NCBI GenBank assembly: GCA_017620235.1
Contig: JAFZQT010000063.1
Span: 1 to 36,725 of the forward strand
Length of the DNA stretch: 36,725 bases
Direction of reading: 5' to 3'
From: Butyrivibrio sp.
GTDB lineage: Bacteria > Bacillota > Clostridia > Lachnospirales > Lachnospiraceae
This document shows, in pieces, positions 20,744-36,281 of the stretch; the first letter of the stretch is position 1; each line of letters starts with the position of its first letter. Made by a program: the position numbers and the translations under genes. The notes below the pieces were generated by a model. That model was not told the origin of the DNA, ran no database searches, and saw only the letters and a list, made by a program, of their open reading frames with translations.

Positions 20744-21394
20744 GTGAATTTTTTTAATAAAAAAGGGAAAAACAGCATTAGAATAGTTGCTTTTGTAATG
20801 CTGTTGTTTATGGTTTTAACAACGGTCGGTTCCGGATTTTTCGCGGCAAGAGGCTTGGCGGGAGATGAGGAGAACTCTTCATATGATAATTCAGGTATAA
20901 GCCAGATTTCTGCCGAAGATCTTTCGGCGCTTCTAAGTGAGGGAGCAGGAACCGCGATAACGTTGGATGCTGATGCACTTGCATCGGATAATGCAGATGA
21001 TGCGTCAAGCGCGGCAGGCAGTGATGCGGCTGTGAGCGGAGGAAGCGAGACTGCATCCGGAGTTGCGGAAAGCGGTGTGTACACTTCCAAGGACGATGTG
21101 GCGCTTTACATCCACACTTACGGAAAACTTCCTTCTAATTTTATCACCAAGAACGAGGCAAAGAAGCTTGGCTGGACAGGCGGAGGCCTTGATGAATTTG
21201 CAAAAGGGAAGTGCATAGGCGGCGATGATTTCGGAAACCGCGAAGGCAAACTTCCTGACGGAAAAAAGTACAAAGAATGTGATATAGATACTATGGGTGC
21301 CGATTCCAGAGGATCGAAGCGAATTGTTTACGCTGACGACGGATCGGTGTATTATACTGACGATCACTATGAGAACTTTGAGCAGGTGTATTAA
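20744..21394 (+). CDS. Exported barnase-type ribonuclease
   Basis: The last 105 residues (112-216) are a guanyl-preferring RNase of the barnase (N1/T1) family: LYIHTYGKLPSNFITKNEA, GKCIGGDDFGNREGKLP and YYTDDHYENF align with Bacillus barnase. The catalytic set is present: K128, E178 (general base), R193 and H208 (general acid). The N-terminus has lysines and a hydrophobic stretch (12-36), a signal peptide or membrane anchor. It is followed by a 75-residue Ala/Ser/Asp-rich linker absent from Bacillus barnase, which may hold the toxin away from the cell. The GTG 20744 start has an AGAGGT ribosome site. The barstar gene starts three bases after the stop. Likely roles are RNA scavenging or killing competitors. 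Confidence 0.92.
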   Translation: MNFFNKKGKNSIRIVAFVMLLFMVLTTVGSGFFAARGLAGDEENSSYDNSGISQISAEDLSALLSEGAGTAITLDADALASDNADDASSAAGSDAAVSGGSETASGVAESGVYTSKDDVALYIHTYGKLPSNFITKNEAKKLGWTGGGLDEFAKGKCIGGDDFGNREGKLPDGKKYKECDIDTMGADSRGSKRIVYADDGSVYYTDDHYENFEQVY

Positions 21395-25822: not shown

Positions 25823-25852
25823 GAAAAATATAATAAATCGTATTTATAAAAC

Positions 25853-25899
25853 AGTATGCCAAGGCAATGTTGAATGATTCAACGTTTCCTTGGCATACT
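25853..25899. repeat. Long near-perfect hairpin between operons
   Basis: Arms AGTATGCCAAGG (25853-25864) and CCTTGGCATACT (25888-25899) are perfect, and an inner GTTGAA/TTCAAC stem with a TGA loop stacks almost continuously on them, about 21 pairs in all. There is no plus-strand T-run; the minus-strand reading is followed by GTTTTAT. It may terminate weakly in either direction or be a mobile palindromic unit. Confidence 0.75.
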
Positions 25900-25928
25900 A
25901 TATATTGTGAAGTAGCGAATAATAAGGA

Positions 25929-26003: not shown

Positions 26004-26897
26004 ATGTTCGATCGTCTAATTGGTGTATATTTGGTAGAGAAAGGCTTGCTCGACAAGAGTCAGCTTGAGAAGGCATATCAGATACAAGAATCCAATTGCG
26101 CTAAGCTTGGTGTTATAGCTGTCGCAGAGAAGCTGATGACAATAGCACAGGCAGAACAGGTAAATGCCATGCAGGCATCTATGGATAAGCGTTTTGGAGA
26201 TATTGCCATCGAGCGTGGGTACTTAACTGATACCCAGGTAAGCCGTCTTGTGGAGTTGCAAGGAAATCCGTATCTTGCATTTATCCAGGCGCTTACGGAT
26301 ATGGGATGCATTTCCCTGAAGAAGTTGGCAGAGGTGGAGGAAGAATATCAGAAACTCCACGGTTTTACAGAGTCAGATATGGCAATTCTTAAGTCTGGTG
26401 ATGTAGAAAAGATCGTGCCTCTTTTCCTTGAAACCGATGACCCGATATACAGAGGTATGTTTTCCATGGGTATCAAGAATATGTACAGACTCGTGGATAG
26501 TCATGTATTTGTCGGAAAGGCATATACGACAAAAAATATTAAGGATGAAGTCCTTGGCTATCAGAAATTCCATGGAGATCAGAATGCGTTTGTAGGCATT
26601 TCAGGCAAGTTTGAAGACGTGCAGAGGATGGCTAAGGCGTACACAAAGGAAGAGTTTGTAGAGACAAAGGAAGACGCGCTTGACGCGGTTTGTGAACTTA
26701 TAAATTGTATCAACGGTTTATATGTAACAGAGCAGAGTAAGAATTCTAAGTTTATTGAGCTTGAGCCCCCCGGATTCTCCATATCATCACCGGAAGCAAG
26801 CTGCGATGAAATTATGGTTATGCCTGTTTATATCTGCGGCGGCGAAGTTAAGTACTTTATTGCAGTATCAAAAGATATAAAAATAACGACCACATAA
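26004..26897 (+). CDS. MshEN-like repeat protein with CheX-type phosphatase domain
   Basis: Residues 180-295 resemble CheX/CheC phosphatases that dephosphorylate CheY; the diagnostic E-x-x-N is E231-L-I-N234 in CELINCINGLY. The N-terminal 115 residues are four 24-residue units (5-28, 34-57, 63-86, 92-115), each separated by exactly five residues. The first three end in Q, and units 1, 3 and 4 have G at position 10; unit 3 starts R-F-G and unit 2 K-L-G. That is the pattern of the MshEN domain, in which two such motifs with a five-residue spacer bind cyclic-di-GMP. Here there are four, some degenerate, so ligand binding is a hypothesis. It is co-transcribed with the CheY gene 21 bases downstream, its likely substrate. 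There is no membrane segment. Confidence 0.8.
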   Translation: MFDRLIGVYLVEKGLLDKSQLEKAYQIQESNCAKLGVIAVAEKLMTIAQAEQVNAMQASMDKRFGDIAIERGYLTDTQVSRLVELQGNPYLAFIQALTDMGCISLKKLAEVEEEYQKLHGFTESDMAILKSGDVEKIVPLFLETDDPIYRGMFSMGIKNMYRLVDSHVFVGKAYTTKNIKDEVLGYQKFHGDQNAFVGISGKFEDVQRMAKAYTKEEFVETKEDALDAVCELINCINGLYVTEQSKNSKFIELEPPGFSISSPEASCDEIMVMPVYICGGEVKYFIAVSKDIKITTT

Positions 26898-26918
26898 TAG
26901 GTTGGAGGAATATAGAAA

Positions 26919-27272
26919 ATGAAAAACGTTTTAATAGTAGATGATTCCAGAACTTCAAGGAAAGTTTTGAGAGATATATTAGAGAGAGCCGGCTATTCAA
27001 TTGTAGGTGAGGCTGTTAACGGACAGGAAGGTTTTGACGAGTACATGAAACTTAAGCCCGACATCGTTACAATGGATATCACTATGCCTGTGCTTGACGG
27101 TATTGATTCACTCAAACTTATCAGAGAAGCTGATCCCAATGCTAAGGTTGTTATGATCACAGCCGCAGGACAGAAGCATAAGATGATGGAAGCAGTTAAG
27201 CTCGGCGCTGCTGAGTTTGTTGCTAAGCCTTTCGTAGAAGAGACTGTTATCGATGCATTGGCACGTTGCTAA
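26919..27272 (+). CDS. cheY: CheY-like single-domain response regulator
   Basis: This 117-aa stand-alone receiver has all key residues: D8 and D9 (acid pocket), phosphoacceptor D53 (TMDITMP), T81 and K103 (VAKPF). It has no output domain, so it acts by binding partners, classically the flagellar switch. GGAGG precedes ATG 26919. Pairing with a CheX-like phosphatase gene implies that its phosphorylation time is set by that protein. No CheA or receptor is nearby, so it may serve chemotaxis encoded elsewhere or another process. A strong terminator follows. Confidence 0.95.
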   Translation: MKNVLIVDDSRTSRKVLRDILERAGYSIVGEAVNGQEGFDEYMKLKPDIVTMDITMPVLDGIDSLKLIREADPNAKVVMITAAGQKHKMMEAVKLGAAEFVAKPFVEETVIDALARC

Positions 27273-27322
27273 TATAGAGTGCGTGTTTTCTGCTAAGCTG
27301 ATAGTGTATTATTAGACAAATT

Positions 27323-27360
27323 ATGTGCGCTGCTCTAATATTAGGGCAGCGCATATTTTA
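27323..27360 (+). terminator. Terminator of the CheX/CheY operon
   Basis: An 11-bp outer stem (27323-27333 with 27346-27356, one G-U pair) continues into an inner stem of CTAA with TTAG, then TTTTA. Its tail merges with the palindrome that follows. Confidence 0.75.
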
Positions 27361-27484
27361 TAGGAAATCTTACTTGATTTCCTATAAAATATATGGATGC
27401 GCAGCTCGCGGGGAGGTAATTTATTGCTTTGCAATACCGCTCGCGCGCAAAAGAGTCGCAAGCGACTCTTTATTATAGGAAATC
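27353..27484. repeat. Palindrome-dense element with repeated TATAGGAAATC
   Basis: A perfect 17-bp inverted repeat (27353-27369 with 27376-27392, loop TTACTT) contains TATAGGAAATC in opposite orientations; a third, direct copy lies at 27474-27484. Between them are a TATTGC/GCAATA hairpin (27422-27436), a G/C-rich CTCGCG-type stretch and a 9-10-bp hairpin AAAGAGTCG/CGACTCTTT (27450-27471). No protein is encoded. It resembles a small palindromic repeat element or a folded leader for the SDR gene. Confidence 0.6.
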
Positions 27485-32053: not shown

Positions 32054-32584
32054 ATGAAATTTACTATCGTGGGCAAAAACATTGATGTAACACCCGGACT
32101 TAAGGCAGCGGTTGAAGAGAAGATCGGAAAACTTGAAAAGTACTTCACTTCTGACACAGTTGCCAATGTTACCCTGAACGTTGATAAGGATAGACATAAG
32201 ATCGAGGTTACCATTCCCGTTAAGGGCAAAATTATCCGTGCAGAGCAGGTTAGCAATGACATGTATGTATCGGTTGACTTGGTAGAGGAGGTTATTGAGA
32301 GACAGCTTAAGAAATACAGAAGTAAGATCGTTGACAAACAGCAGGCAGAGGTAAGCAACTTCAAGAAAGAATATCTTGAGGCTGATTACATGGATGAAGA
32401 AACCATCCGCATCGAGAGGATCAAGAAATTCGATCCAAAGCCTATGTACGCAGAAGATGCATGTGTTCAGATGGAACTTTTGGGACACAACTTCTTTGTA
32501 TTTGTCAATGCAGAAACAGATAAAGTTAATGTAGTTTATAAGAGAAAGGGGAACACGTACGGATTAATAGAACCTGAGGTATGA
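32054..32584 (+). CDS. hpf: Long-form ribosome hibernation promoting factor
   Basis: The N-terminal domain (about 1-105; MKFTIVGKNIDVTPGLKAAV and KIGKLEKYF) is the RaiA/HPF fold that enters the decoding centre of the 30S subunit. The C-terminal domain (about 120-176; IRIERIKKFDPKPM, QMELLGHNFFVFVN and GLIEPEV) is the dimerisation domain that joins two 70S ribosomes as 100S in Firmicutes. The length of 176 aa fits the long form. Start ATG 32054 is preceded by AAAGGGGAT; an upstream in-frame ATG (32012) lacks a site. Its stop overlaps the next gene by four bases (ATGA), so the CotH-like gene is translationally coupled to it. Confidence 0.95.
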   Translation: MKFTIVGKNIDVTPGLKAAVEEKIGKLEKYFTSDTVANVTLNVDKDRHKIEVTIPVKGKIIRAEQVSNDMYVSVDLVEEVIERQLKKYRSKIVDKQQAEVSNFKKEYLEADYMDEETIRIERIKKFDPKPMYAEDACVQMELLGHNFFVFVNAETDKVNVVYKRKGNTYGLIEPEV

Positions 32585-34692
32585 TAGATAAGATTTTTTT
32601 TAGCAGAAAAAAAACTATGATAATTTTTGGGTTGCTGGCCATCGGTGCAGCAACCCTTTTATATTTTGGAAGTGAAAGAGAGAATAGGAATGTTGTAATA
32701 AACGAAGTGTGCGCGGATAACTTCTGTGCATATCGTAACAGTTCAGGAGATTATCCCGATTATGTGGAGCTTTACAACATGTCGGAAGAAGATGTCTCCG
32801 GACTTTATCTTTCAGATAGTAGAAAGAATCCGAAGAAATTTAAGGTTGAAGAAACAATACCTTCCAATGAGTACTATGTGGTCGAGCTTTCAAAATATAT
32901 GGAGAATGGCTTTGGAATAAGTAAGGGCGGAGAAGAGTTGTTTCTTAGCAACGAAGAGGGCAGGATAATTGATTCTGTCGCGATTCCTGAACTTTCATTA
33001 GATGTGACATATTCCAGAACAGAGGACGGAGAAGGCAGATTTTCCACTATGTCCGCAACTCCCGGAGGATCAAACAGTGATGCTGTGCAAGTTGCAACTT
33101 CCTTTATAGAAAGTCCGAAGTTTTCTATAGAAGACGGATTTTACAACGAGGGAACGAAATTAAAGATAACGTCTTCGCCGCTTGTGGATATTTTTTACAC
33201 CGATGACGGAAGTGTTCCGGATGAGAATTCACATAAGTACAAGGGCGAGATCACTCTTTCCGACGCGTCCGCAAAAGATAATATCTATGCGAATGAGATA
33301 ATGTATCCGACTTACATTCCGCCGGCTTACAAGATCGATAAGGCAAATGTTATCAGTGCGATAGCCGTAAACAAGTTTACAGGAAAAAAGAGCAGAGTGG
33401 AGACGCACACTTATTTTGTCGGTTTTGATAAAAAAGATGTGTATAAAGATATGAAGATCATGTCGCTTGTCTTTGATCCCGAAGACCTCTTTGGTCATGA
33501 CAGAGGAATCTATACTCTTGGTAAGAAGTATGATGAATACAAGGAACTTGGCGGCTTTGTTGATCTTCCGGATGATCGGATCCCGAGTAGTTTTACCGAT
33601 GAAAATGGATGGGTACAATATAGAAGTTCTTACACAAATTCGGAGAGCAAGGGAACGGAATCTGAGAGAAGAGCGCATATGACGGTTTTTGATGAGGCGC
33701 ATAAAGATCTCTTTTCACAGGATATCGGTGTGAGGATAGCGGGTGAGTCTACGAGAGCAAGTCATCAGAAGTCACTTAATCTTTATTCCAGAGAAAAATA
33801 TGATGGAAATGAGTACTTTGCCAATAGCTTTTTTAACAATAATGAAAAGAAAATCCGCCTTAGAAGATGTGACAGCGGAGTGGCGTACCTTGAGCCTTTC
33901 ATCCAGTCTGTCATAGGTGAGACGGGGATTCCTTATCAGGATTCAGAGCCTGCAGCTGTTTTTATAAACGGCGAGTACTGGGGAATCTATAATCTGAGAG
34001 AAAAGTACGATGAAAATTATTTTAAAGAGCATTTTGGTATTCCTTTCGAACAGCTATGGACTGTGAAGAACAGCGAGGTTGAGTGGGGCGATATTGGGGC
34101 AGATGAGGCTTACAATTCGCTTATCGACAGGATCTGCGAGCTTGACATGAGCGATGATGAGGCTTATTCATCGGTGGAGAGCGAGCTCGATATTGACAAT
34201 ATGATCGATTATTATTGCATTCTACTGTTCTTTAATGATCAGGACATCAATGGTGAGCACAACAGATTCTTGTTCAGGACAAGGGAACCCGGAGCCGGAG
34301 CGTGCAGTGACGGCAAGTGGCGGTTTGTTGCGTATGACCTTGATGTTACCTGCGAGAATGTGGAGAATGACACGGTTTCTGATTACAGAGAGATTGATGA
34401 AAAGATGTTTTTGCCGGGCTATTTCTATTCCAGACCCGGATTTAAGGAACGCTTCTATAACAGAATGGTCGAGCTTACAGAGAATGAGCTGTCATACGAG
34501 CATCTGAGTAAAAAGCTCTCCGAGTGGGATAAGGTGTACCGCGAACAGAGCATCGAGACATACAGAAGGTTTAACGAGGATGATTATTCTGAAAAAGATT
34601 ATGAGAGAGAGCTCTCGAAACTTGATTCGTTTTTTAAGAATCGAAAAGAATATGTCCTTAAAATGTTAGAAAAAGATATAAAAGAGAATTAA
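32581..34692 (+). CDS. CotH-kinase-family protein with lamin-tail domain
   Basis: An N-terminal membrane anchor (about 12-30) is followed by a lamin-tail-like domain (36-165; VVINEVCADN, DYVELYNMS), a chitobiase/FN3-like beta domain (about 175-285; IFYTDDGSVPD) and a CotH domain (about 290-650). CotH signatures are RIAGESTRASHQKSLNLY, EYWGIYNLREKYDENYF and WRFVAYDLDVT, the last carrying the acidic metal site. CotH proteins are protein kinases: Bacillus CotH phosphorylates spore-coat proteins, and in Clostridia they often occur as extracellular multidomain proteins beside cellulosome or surface genes. The role here is probably outside the membrane. It overlaps the hpf stop by 4 bases, an unexpected partner. 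A terminator follows. The length of 703 aa is typical of the LTD-CotH architecture. Confidence 0.88.
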   Translation: MIDKIFFSRKKTMIIFGLLAIGAATLLYFGSERENRNVVINEVCADNFCAYRNSSGDYPDYVELYNMSEEDVSGLYLSDSRKNPKKFKVEETIPSNEYYVVELSKYMENGFGISKGGEELFLSNEEGRIIDSVAIPELSLDVTYSRTEDGEGRFSTMSATPGGSNSDAVQVATSFIESPKFSIEDGFYNEGTKLKITSSPLVDIFYTDDGSVPDENSHKYKGEITLSDASAKDNIYANEIMYPTYIPPAYKIDKANVISAIAVNKFTGKKSRVETHTYFVGFDKKDVYKDMKIMSLVFDPEDLFGHDRGIYTLGKKYDEYKELGGFVDLPDDRIPSSFTDENGWVQYRSSYTNSESKGTESERRAHMTVFDEAHKDLFSQDIGVRIAGESTRASHQKSLNLYSREKYDGNEYFANSFFNNNEKKIRLRRCDSGVAYLEPFIQSVIGETGIPYQDSEPAAVFINGEYWGIYNLREKYDENYFKEHFGIPFEQLWTVKNSEVEWGDIGADEAYNSLIDRICELDMSDDEAYSSVESELDIDNMIDYYCILLFFNDQDINGEHNRFLFRTREPGAGACSDGKWRFVAYDLDVTCENVENDTVSDYREIDEKMFLPGYFYSRPGFKERFYNRMVELTENELSYEHLSKKLSEWDKVYREQSIETYRRFNEDDYSEKDYERELSKLDSFFKNRKEYVLKMLEKDIKEN

Positions 34693-34890: not shown

Positions 34891-36081
34891 ATGGCACAGA
34901 AAGTAGTATTAGCGGGCGCGTGTAGAACGGCTATCGGCAAGATGGGTGGAGCTTTGAGTAACACACCGGCTGCAGAGCTTGGTTCTATAGTTATCAAGGA
35001 AGCACTTAATCGTGCAGGTGTTAAGCCTGAGCAGGTCGATGAAGTTCTCATGGGTTGCGTTATCCAGGCAGGTCTTGGACAGAACGTAGCAAGACAGGCT
35101 TCAATCAAGGCCGGTCTTCCTATTGAAACTCCTGCTGTAACTCTTAACGTAGTTTGCGGATCAGGTCTTAACTGTGTCAATATGGCAGCTGATCTTATCA
35201 AGGCCGGAGAGGCTGATATAGTAGTAGCAGGCGGAATGGAGAACATGTCTATGGCTCCTTACGCACTTCCCAATGCACGTTTCGGATATCGTATGAACAA
35301 CGGAACAGTTGTAGATACAATGGTAAACGATGCTCTTACAGATGCATTCAATCACTATCACATGATGATAACAGCAGAGAACATCTGCGACAGATGGAAC
35401 CTTACAAGAGAAGAGCTTGACGAGTTCTCAGCAAATTCTCAGCAGAAGTGCGAGAAGGCTATGGCTGACGGCAAGTTCAACGACGAGATCGTTCCCGTTC
35501 CTGTTAAGGTTAAAAAGGAAATGGTAGACTTCAAGGTTGATGAGGGCCCTCGTGCCGGCACAACAGCTGAGTCTCTTTCAAAGCTTAGATGCTGCTCAGG
35601 TAAGGAAGGCGGACTTGTAACAGCAGGTAACGCTTCTGGTATCAACGACGGTGCAGCAGCAATCGTTGTTATGAGCGAAGAGAAGGCTAAAGAGCTCGGA
35701 ATCAAGCCTATGGCTACATGGGTAGGCGGAGCACTTGCAGGTGTTGAGCCCGAGGTTATGGGTATCGGACCTGTTGCAGCTACAAACAAGGTTCTTAAGA
35801 AGACAGGACTTTCACTTGACAATATCGATCTTATCGAGGCTAACGAGGCATTTGCAGCACAGTCTGTTGCAGTAGCTAAGGACCTTGGATTCGATATGAG
35901 CAAGGTTAATGTAAACGGTGGTGCTATTGCACTTGGACATCCCGTTGGAGCTTCAGGATGCCGTATCCTTGTAACTCTTCTTCACGAGATGGGCAGAAGA
36001 GCAGATGCTAAGAAGGGTCTTGCAACTCTTTGCATCGGCGGCGGAATGGGATGCGCAACAATCGTAGAAAAATATGAGTGA
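34891..36081 (+). CDS. thlA: Acetyl-CoA acetyltransferase (thiolase)
   Basis: The biosynthetic thiolase condenses two acetyl-CoA to acetoacetyl-CoA, the first step of butyrate formation. Catalytic residues are nucleophile C89 (NVVCGSG), H350 ([10 protein letters not shown]) and base C381 (LCIGGGMG). The 396-aa length and the [20 protein letters not shown] start are typical. GGAGG precedes ATG 34891. Strong codon bias, like that of flagellin, suggests high expression. The crotonase gene for a later step in the same pathway begins 200 bases downstream beyond a hairpin-rich gap. In many Lachnospiraceae the operon continues with hydroxybutyryl-CoA dehydrogenase, butyryl-CoA dehydrogenase and EtfBA; they lie beyond the window if present. 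Confidence 0.96.
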
Positions 36082-36094
36082 TATAGGGAAGAAA

Positions 36095-36238
36095 ATGCGT
36101 GACGACTGCTGTGCTTGCACAGAGCAGTCGTTATGCATTTGATGACCGAACAGGCATAAGGAAAAAAATATACGAATGTATATGAGCATATCGATTTCCG
36201 AATGCCTGTAGCATGACGAGAGCGTAGCGGAGTCATGC
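36095..36238. repeat. Three consecutive hairpins between thiolase and crotonase
   Basis: Hairpin 1 (36095-36138) pairs ATGCGTGACGACTGC with GCAGTCGTTATGCAT using two G-U pairs, capped by TGTGC/GCACA. Hairpin 2 (36150-36209) pairs ACAGGCAT and GGAAA with TTTCC and ATGCCTGT, and encloses ATATAC/GTATAT. Hairpin 3 (36211-36238) pairs GCATGAC with GTCATGC. None has a T-run. They may lower crotonase expression relative to thiolase, stabilise mRNA ends, or be palindromic repeat units. No gene is present in this 200-base gap. Confidence 0.6.
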
Positions 36239-36281
36239 GTATATCACCAATAACGTAAATAATTTTAAAGGAGATAATGAC

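What the first reader, a model, noticed from the sequence alone, without database searches (positions are those of the whole stretch)
26004..27272. Four MshEN-like repeats fused to a CheX phosphatase, co-transcribed with CheY
The N-terminal 115 residues consist of four 24-residue units with exactly five-residue spacers (5-28, 34-57, 63-86, 92-115). Two such motifs with this spacing make up the cyclic-di-GMP-binding MshEN domain of type II secretion and pilus ATPases. Here the array is doubled and joined not to an ATPase but to a CheX-like domain with the E231-xx-N234 phosphatase motif, beside a stand-alone CheY. If it binds c-di-GMP, it would couple second-messenger level directly to CheY-phosphate lifetime, a route I do not know to be described. 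Against this, the R-L-G start is degenerate in units 1 and 4.
Basis: partly seen in the sequence, partly recalled or inferred. Interest (0 to 1): 0.78.

Follow-up and report, generated by a model that had tools for sequence, protein, structure and literature searches.

The report
MshEN-like sensor fused to CheY phosphatase
A rumen bacterium makes a protein that joins a probable sensor for the signal molecule c-di-GMP to an enzyme that should switch off the chemotaxis protein CheY encoded next to it; the pair is conserved in many motile relatives, the domain pairing has been mentioned before, and what it does can now be tested at the bench.

Summary
ORF 26004-26897 (297 aa; closest relatives Butyrivibrio) holds four helical hairpins of 29-residue period, then a CheX domain with ExxN; a complete CheY starts 21 bp downstream. 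NCBIfam's MshE-type c-di-GMP profile and Pfam CheX both pass their curated cut-offs. Two corrections. (1) The array is probably not a doubled MshEN: conservation, predicted helix starts and the alignment with V. cholerae MshE point to ONE ligand site, from units 2 and 3, flanked by more degenerate units 1 and 4. It has Ala50/Asn54/Phe64 where MshE has leucines, so binding is likely, not assured. (2) The pairing is not unknown: the 2016 MshEN paper names CheX among MshEN partner domains in one sentence; the searches I made listed no test of it. New here: in 76 of 78 family genomes with the protein, a CheY-type receiver is adjacent or fused (8 fusions, two branches); 73 of these 78 encode flagellin against 56 of 172 others. 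The genome also has CheC and another stand-alone CheY, so this looks like a second, dedicated CheY-phosphatase pair. Best reading: c-di-GMP-gated CheY-P phosphatase. Binding, phosphatase activity and coupling are untested.

The parts
26004..26897 (+). MshEN-like array + CheX protein, 297 aa
   Evidence: ORF; NF053729 and CheX profiles over cut-off; AlphaFold pLDDT 93.4, pTM 0.86
26016..26087 (+). unit 1 (residues 5-28), more degenerate flank
   Evidence: motif score 10/11, but contact positions vary in relatives (mean entropy 1.36 bits); full pattern in 7 of 87, though G7 is kept in 82 of 87
26103..26174 (+). unit 2 (residues 34-57), first half of the inferred ligand site: K34, L35, G36, A50, N54, Q57
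   Evidence: contact positions mean entropy 0.28 bits; aligned with MshE motif 1
26190..26261 (+). unit 3 (residues 63-86), second half of the inferred ligand site: R63, F64, G65, V79, V83, Q86
   Evidence: contact positions mean entropy 0.27 bits; aligned with MshE motif 2
26277..26348 (+). unit 4 (residues 92-115), degenerate flank
   Evidence: motif score 6/11; contact positions mean entropy 1.80 bits; full pattern in 0 of 87
26442..26891 (+). CheX-fold domain (about residues 147-296; borders read off the model's helices and strands)
   Evidence: DSSP of the model; Foldseek CheX hits, best E 4.8e-9; Pfam CheX at residues 184-258
26694..26705 (+). E231-x-x-N234 phosphatase motif
   Evidence: E and N in 87 of 87 non-redundant relatives; in a wider set N 87 of 87, position 231 E 58 and D 29 of 87
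26919..27272 (+). stand-alone CheY (receiver) with D8, D9, D53, T81, K103
   Evidence: Response_reg 103.4 bits; residues
25853..25899 (+). strong hairpin between the upstream gene and this pair (no T run)
   Evidence: -29.3 kcal/mol for 25850-25912
27323..27356 (+). terminator-like hairpin after cheY, followed by TTTTAT
   Evidence: -32.2 kcal/mol for 27318-27382

Best explanation
It is a CheY-P phosphatase of the CheX type with a built-in cyclic-dinucleotide sensor, working as a dedicated pair with the CheY encoded beside it. Proposed steps: (i) CheA, of which this genome bin shows one, phosphorylates the adjacent CheY at D53 (inferred); (ii) the CheX domain presents N234 and E231 to that phosphoryl site and hydrolyses it (motif and fold shown; activity inferred; the roles of the two residues are recalled from known CheX); (iii) c-di-GMP binds in one site between units 2 and 3: K34/R63 stack on the bases, the backbone amides at G36/G65 at the start of two short helices read them, Q57/Q86 hold ribose and phosphate (residues, helix starts and alignment to MshE shown; binding inferred); (iv) binding shifts the helical array and changes the CheX domain's access to CheY-P or its oligomer (inferred; the sign, activation or inhibition, is unknown). 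Net effect: c-di-GMP sets how long this CheY stays phosphorylated, either as an output toward motor or pili, or as a phosphate drain on CheA that indirectly changes the other CheY.
For: Profiles, fold and motif. Family profile aligned to MshE 5htl over profile positions 30-88 = units 2-3, domain E 5.4e-5. The 12 contact positions of units 2+3: mean entropy 0.28 bits against 0.97 for the 48 positions of units 2+3 (permutation p 0.0005), and 0 of 20000 random draws from residues 1-120 as low. First helices short and starting at the ligand position only in units 2 and 3 (35-41, 64-70; units 1 and 4: 2-12, 89-99), like the broken helix 1 of ligand-bound MshE (PMC5013675). All 8 ligand features in 76 of 87 rows. 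Receiver adjacent or fused in 76 of 78 genomes, upstream in 26, fused in 8, fusions on two branches. D53 and K103 kept in 76 of 76 paired receivers. Flagellin in 73 of 78 holders vs 56 of 172 others; CheA in 74 of 78 holders (others not searched). GGDEF-type gene divergent 115-201 bp upstream in 5 of 77; 3 of these 5 scanned, all GGDEF-EAL.
Against: The first guanine platform is not canonical: A50 and N54 replace leucines (N54 in 87 of 87 of the non-redundant set; N 50, H 18, C 5, V 4, L 3 of 87 in the wider set). In MshE any single change of the conserved hydrophobic residues cost more than 10-fold in affinity, and non-binding XpsE has L29R (the N54 place) and L54H among eight changes. No MshEN C-terminal subdomain. 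The NF053729 profile scores units 1-2 (37.7 bits) above units 2-3 (26.6); unit 1 keeps G7 in 82 of 87; contact positions of pairs 1-2 and 3-4 are also more conserved than random draws (p 0.0036 and 0.034; both pairs share a unit with 2-3); the best profile hit, PilF (E 9.7e-7), has its best stretch over units 1-3. No MshEN structure is among the 50 Foldseek rows shown (dominated by CheX). GGDEF presence says nothing beyond flagella: all 56 flagellated genomes without the protein have GGDEF. The GGDEF neighbours are one clade. 11 of 87 miss at least one ligand feature (L231 six; L163 is a truncated ORF). The branch with the receiver upstream has DxxN, 26 of 26. The only holder lacking both CheA and flagellin (G070) keeps the ligand residues while its receiver has lost D9 and its E231 is D.
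Confidence: 0.58

Rival explanations
1. Phosphatase pair without ligand control: the hairpin array is a former MshEN that now serves as a scaffold for dimerisation, localisation or docking on CheA or the motor.
For: Leucines lost in unit 2; units 1 and 4 degenerate; some relatives have lost glycine or glutamine.
Against: Among the most conserved residues of the array are those that touch nucleotide in MshE: G36, Q57, F64, G65, Q86 in 87 of 87; permutation p 0.0005. The glycines and glutamines of units 2 and 3 are kept in the 9 distant members as well (9 of 9 each). But N54, A68 and F93, which are not MshE contacts of that kind, are invariant too.
Confidence: 0.2
2. The site binds a different or asymmetric nucleotide (for example 3',3'-cGAMP or a mononucleotide): one half site is canonical (R63, G65, V79, V83, L35), the other altered (K34, G36, A50, N54, F64).
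For: N54 and F64 in place of leucines in one half only; histidine at 54 in 7 of 9 distant members.
Against: Enzymes for other cyclic dinucleotides were not searched for.
Confidence: 0.12
3. The adjacent CheY is not the substrate but an allosteric partner, and CheX acts on the other CheY; or the pair acts on type IV pili rather than flagella.
For: Another stand-alone CheY (C110, 48% identical) and CheC exist. Four holders have no flagellin and no FliM match but have T2SSE-family ATPases (PilB/PilT-like by inference; the family also rings in the window's genome and in 13 of 14 controls over cut-off); three of the four have CheA.
Against: Adjacency or fusion with the receiver in 76 of 78 with phosphorylation residues kept; 73 of 78 have flagellin.
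Confidence: 0.1

Closest known systems
MshEN domain of V. cholerae MshE (PDB 5htl; PMC5013675, abstract and passages seen)
   Same: 24-residue motifs with 5-residue spacers; Gly at position 3, Gln at position 24, basic position 1 in both halves of units 2-3; short first helices; alignment of units 2-3 with MshE residues 5-63
   Different: four units instead of two; A50/N54/F64 in place of leucines; no alpha/beta C-terminal subdomain; output is CheX, not an ATPase
PilF of Thermus thermophilus with three GSPII domains (PMC11731258, abstract and passages seen)
   Same: several MshEN-type domains in a row of which only two bind; K or L accepted at position 1; also matched by the family profile
   Different: three complete domains and an ATPase; here one inferred site
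CheX of Thermotoga maritima (1squ, 1xko) and Borrelia burgdorferi CheX-CheY complex (3hzh)
   Same: fold and ExxN motif (the motif's role is recalled)
   Different: these CheX structures are stand-alone proteins of about 150 residues; here with an N-terminal sensor array and an adjacent CheY
Cle proteins, CheY-type c-di-GMP receptors (named in the introduction and reference list of PMC6200980, passages seen)
   Same: c-di-GMP input into chemotaxis-type signalling
   Different: there the CheY-like protein binds the ligand; here the phosphatase would
YcgR/PilZ flagellar regulator (function recalled; a PilZ/YcgR gene lies in this genome's che cluster)
   Same: c-di-GMP control of motility
   Different: acts on the motor (recalled), not on CheY-P

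Membership tests
MshEN (c-di-GMP-binding T2SSE_N) | tandem 24-residue motifs with 5-residue spacer | tested here: met
MshEN (c-di-GMP-binding T2SSE_N) | curated profile NF053729 above cut-off | tested here: met
   50.9 vs 38 bits; 29 of 29 relatives match at E 0.001
MshEN (c-di-GMP-binding T2SSE_N) | Gly at position 3 and Gln at position 24 of both halves | tested here: met
   units 2-3: 87 of 87 non-redundant relatives; not met in unit 4
MshEN (c-di-GMP-binding T2SSE_N) | leucines at positions 2, 17 and 21 of both motifs (hydrophobic platform) | tested here: not met
   unit 2 has A50 and N54, unit 3 has F64, V79, V83; hence filed as MshEN-like, not as a canonical MshEN
MshEN (c-di-GMP-binding T2SSE_N) | alpha/beta C-terminal subdomain with the Asp contact | tested here: not met
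   unit 4 and then the CheX fold follow in the model
MshEN (c-di-GMP-binding T2SSE_N) | binds c-di-GMP | not testable with these tools
   needs ITC or thermal shift
CheX | Pfam CheX above gathering score | tested here: met
   32.7 vs 27 bits; 26 of 29 relatives match at E 0.001
CheX | CheX fold | tested here: met
   3hm4_A E 4.8e-9, TMt 0.78; 3hzh_B E 1.4e-7
CheX | ExxN catalytic pair | tested here: met
   E231, N234
CheX | dephosphorylates CheY-P | not testable with these tools
   needs an assay
CheY | acid pocket D8, D9, phosphorylation site D53, T81, K103, no output domain | tested here: met

The most novel reading that the evidence does not exclude
A conserved two-gene switch in Bacillota in which c-di-GMP, bound in a single pocket of a four-hairpin array with an Asn/Phe-modified guanine platform, directly sets the activity of a CheX phosphatase on its own CheY, so that second-messenger level is converted into CheY-P lifetime at the phosphatase step of chemotaxis, in flagellated relatives and in relatives that seem to have pili only.
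Probability: 0.45. Interest if true: 0.8.

Novelty: new variant of a known kind. Interest (0 to 1): 0.55.

Why it matters
If true, it is a direct link from c-di-GMP to the dephosphorylation of a CheY, for which the listings of my searches showed no described case; it would be common among flagellated Lachnospiraceae (73 of 129 flagellin-bearing genomes in the sample) and present in other families of the phylum. It gives the domain pairing noted in 2016 a partner, a predicted site and simple mutants, in bacteria not known to me as pathogens.

Tried and rejected
Two full MshEN domains (units 1-2 and 3-4): set aside on conservation, helix starts and alignment to MshE, although the NF053729 profile itself scores units 1-2 best (37.7 bits) and units 2-3 less (26.6). 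With the single window sequence, phmmer's MshE match ran over residues 34-105.

GGDEF co-occurrence as support for c-di-GMP: 78 of 78 holders vs 135 of 172, but all 56 flagellated non-holders also have GGDEF, so it was dropped as independent evidence.

A riboswitch or other RNA on the transcript: the one Rfam match in the window at gathering score is at 36078-36247. Promoter and terminator scan: not above shuffles; the two hairpins were folded separately, without a shuffle control.

Dropped before counts: one search used 108 rows after leaving out L003 (the window again), L008 and L089 (truncated ORFs), then kept 87 below 90% identity; this set is rich in Butyrivibrio. One search used 87 other rows: the 78 holders plus 9 distant members (L141 and L142 left out as repeats), no redundancy filter. 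In one search four partial hits (G016, G079, G089, G115) were not counted as holders. FliM and T2SSE were sought in six genomes each. Of 18 matches in the phylum search (17 of 398 genomes) I looked at ten loci, L142-L151, two of them of the same family.

Literature: 'MshEN'+'CheX' (1 paper), 'MshEN domain'+'c-di-GMP'+'response regulator' (36 papers, 20 listed), 'CheX'+'c-di-GMP'+'phosphatase'+'CheY' (16 papers, 15 listed), 'CheY phosphatase'+'c-di-GMP' (3 papers), CheX/CheC/FliY (8 papers), 'MshEN'+'CheY' (18 papers, 15 listed), 'Lachnospiraceae'+'c-di-GMP'+'chemotaxis'+'flagell' (5 papers). Listings only were seen, except passages of PMC5013675, PMC11731258, PMC6200980 and PMC11656802. Only open-licence PMC papers are covered. 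Supplementary Table 4 of PMC5013675, to which its CheX sentence points, was not seen.

Full report
What is there. ORF 26004-26897 encodes 297 aa; 21 bp further, 26919-27272 encodes a 117-aa CheY. The four nearest named relatives, 93-95% identical, are Butyrivibrio (B. hungatei and others), so the window is very probably Butyrivibrio (Bacillota, Lachnospiraceae). Upstream lies an SseB-domain gene, downstream an SDR gene. Strong hairpins sit at 25853-25899 and 27323-27356, which fits a two-gene unit; promoter and terminator scans were not above chance.

The array. The four units with 5-residue spacers are real: 36 of 44 motif positions, 0 of 5000 shuffles, and NCBIfam NF053729 at 50.9 bits against 38. 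AlphaFold on 59 sequences gives pLDDT 93.4 and pTM 0.86 for the full protein and pLDDT 93.8 for residues 1-121 alone, with eight helices, the second helices starting at 18, 47, 76 and 105.

One site, not two. In 87 non-redundant relatives G36, N54, Q57, F64, G65, A68, Q86 and F93 are invariant. The positions that touch c-di-GMP in MshE (1, 2, 3, 17, 21, 24 of each motif, taken from the residues described in PMC5013675) have mean entropy 0.28 and 0.27 bits in units 2 and 3, against 1.36 in unit 1 and 1.80 in unit 4. The family profile aligns units 2-3 with MshE residues 5-63. Only units 2 and 3 have short first helices that start at the ligand position (35-41, 64-70), whereas those of units 1 and 4 run 2-12 and 89-99; in MshE the first helix is broken because a full helix would clash with c-di-GMP. 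In a second set, 78 holders plus 9 distant members, all eight ligand features of units 2+3 are complete in 76 of 87, the pattern of unit 1 in 7 and of unit 4 in 0. Against this: the NF053729 profile prefers units 1-2; unit 1 keeps its glycine in 82 of 87; PilF, the best profile hit, aligns best over units 1-3; pairs 1-2 and 3-4 are also more conserved than random draws, p 0.0036 and 0.034, though each shares a unit with 2-3. The first guanine platform has A50/N54/F64 instead of leucines. In MshE single changes of these hydrophobic residues cost more than 10-fold in affinity, yet L54A/L58A variants were still stabilised by c-di-GMP while G11L and G40I were not, so the glycines matter most; the asparagine remains unexplained.

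The enzyme. Pfam CheX 32.7 bits against 27, CheX in 26 of 29 relatives; Foldseek's best PDB hits are CheX structures, and rank 6 is the Borrelia CheX-CheY complex 3hzh. E231 and N234 are invariant in the 87 non-redundant relatives. In the wider set N234 is 87 of 87 and position 231 is E in 58 and D in 29; the branch whose receiver lies upstream is D in 26 of 26.

The partner. Among 250 genomes of the family, 78 hold the full-length protein. In the 77 besides the window, the receiver is directly downstream in 41 (40 by rule, L157 by inspection), directly upstream in 26, fused in 8, not found in 2 (L187, L228); with the window, 76 of 78. Of 80 named loci, 79 have it downstream; L052 lacks it. 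Seven fused proteins fall together (support 0.99) and one apart. The ten loci of the phylum search that I examined (L142-L151) each have a receiver gene next to the protein. In 76 of 76 paired receivers D8, D53 and K103 are kept, D9 in 75.

The setting. Flagellin is found in 73 of 78 holders and 56 of 172 others (Fisher p 2.5e-21); CheA in 74 of 78 holders. Of the five holders without flagellin, G151 has FliM, so incompleteness (72%) is likely; G120, G040, G068 and G070 have no FliM match but have T2SSE-family ATPases (PilB/PilT-like by inference), and three of the four have CheA. GGDEF is in 78 of 78, but also in all 56 flagellated genomes without the protein. In 5 of 77 loci a GGDEF gene stands divergently 115-201 bp upstream; three were scanned and are GGDEF-EAL; the five lie in one clade. 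The window's genome bin (86% complete) also has a che cluster with YcgR, CheB, CheA, CheW, CheC and CheD and another stand-alone CheY, 48% identical, with the same sequence in the congener G207; that one resembles the motor CheY of Bacillus subtilis (recalled, not tested), and there is a third CheY-like ORF at 41%. Both NF053729 matches in this genome bin lie in this protein.

How it probably works. See Best explanation; fold, motifs, site residues and partner are shown, while binding, activity, coupling and sign are inferred.

What is known. The MshEN paper (PMC5013675; abstract and passages seen) names CheX among domains that accompany MshEN, in one sentence pointing to a supplementary table that I did not see. 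The listings of my searches showed no paper whose title or abstract start reports a test of it; most of those papers were not read. So the architecture is a known pairing; the single composite site, the paired receiver, the fusions and the distribution are what this work adds.

Verdict. A real and well conserved module, filed as MshEN-like plus CheX; not a canonical MshEN, because the leucine platform and the C-terminal subdomain were tested and not met.

Noticed in passing
26 of the loci L203-L231 (all but L204, L214, L228): A separate branch has the receiver gene upstream, DxxN in place of ExxN (26 of 26), and H, C, V, L or other residues at position 54; its phosphatase may be weaker or differently tuned.
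   Followed up: partly
L115 / L204 (G070): In a genome (99% complete) without matches to flagellin, FliM or CheA, the paired receiver has lost D9 and T81 and CheX has D for E, while the ligand residues of units 2-3 stay: possible change to a phosphorylation-free output.
   Followed up: partly
L155-L158, L204: GGDEF-type genes (three of five scanned, all GGDEF-EAL) divergently placed next to the MshEN-CheX gene in one clade.
   Followed up: yes
G120, G040, G068: Genomes with CheA and T2SSE-family ATPases but no match to flagellin or FliM keep the pair; in G120 a cheY-cheA-type cluster follows a topoisomerase-like gene (L152, named from start residues only).
   Followed up: partly
alignment A1: 23 of 29 proteins also match TIGR03029 (EpsG tyrosine kinase) at E 0.001; in the window protein the weak match lies at residues 33-86, which hints at MshEN-like units in that family too.
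   Followed up: no
window 36078-36247 +: Clostridiales-1 RNA, 98 bits against a gathering score of 48.
   Followed up: no
window 20744-21394 +: 216-aa protein with a C-terminal ribonuclease domain (PF00545, residues 119-215).
   Followed up: no
window 32581-34692 +: CotH kinase protein with a lamin-tail-like domain (LTD just below its cut-off).
   Followed up: no
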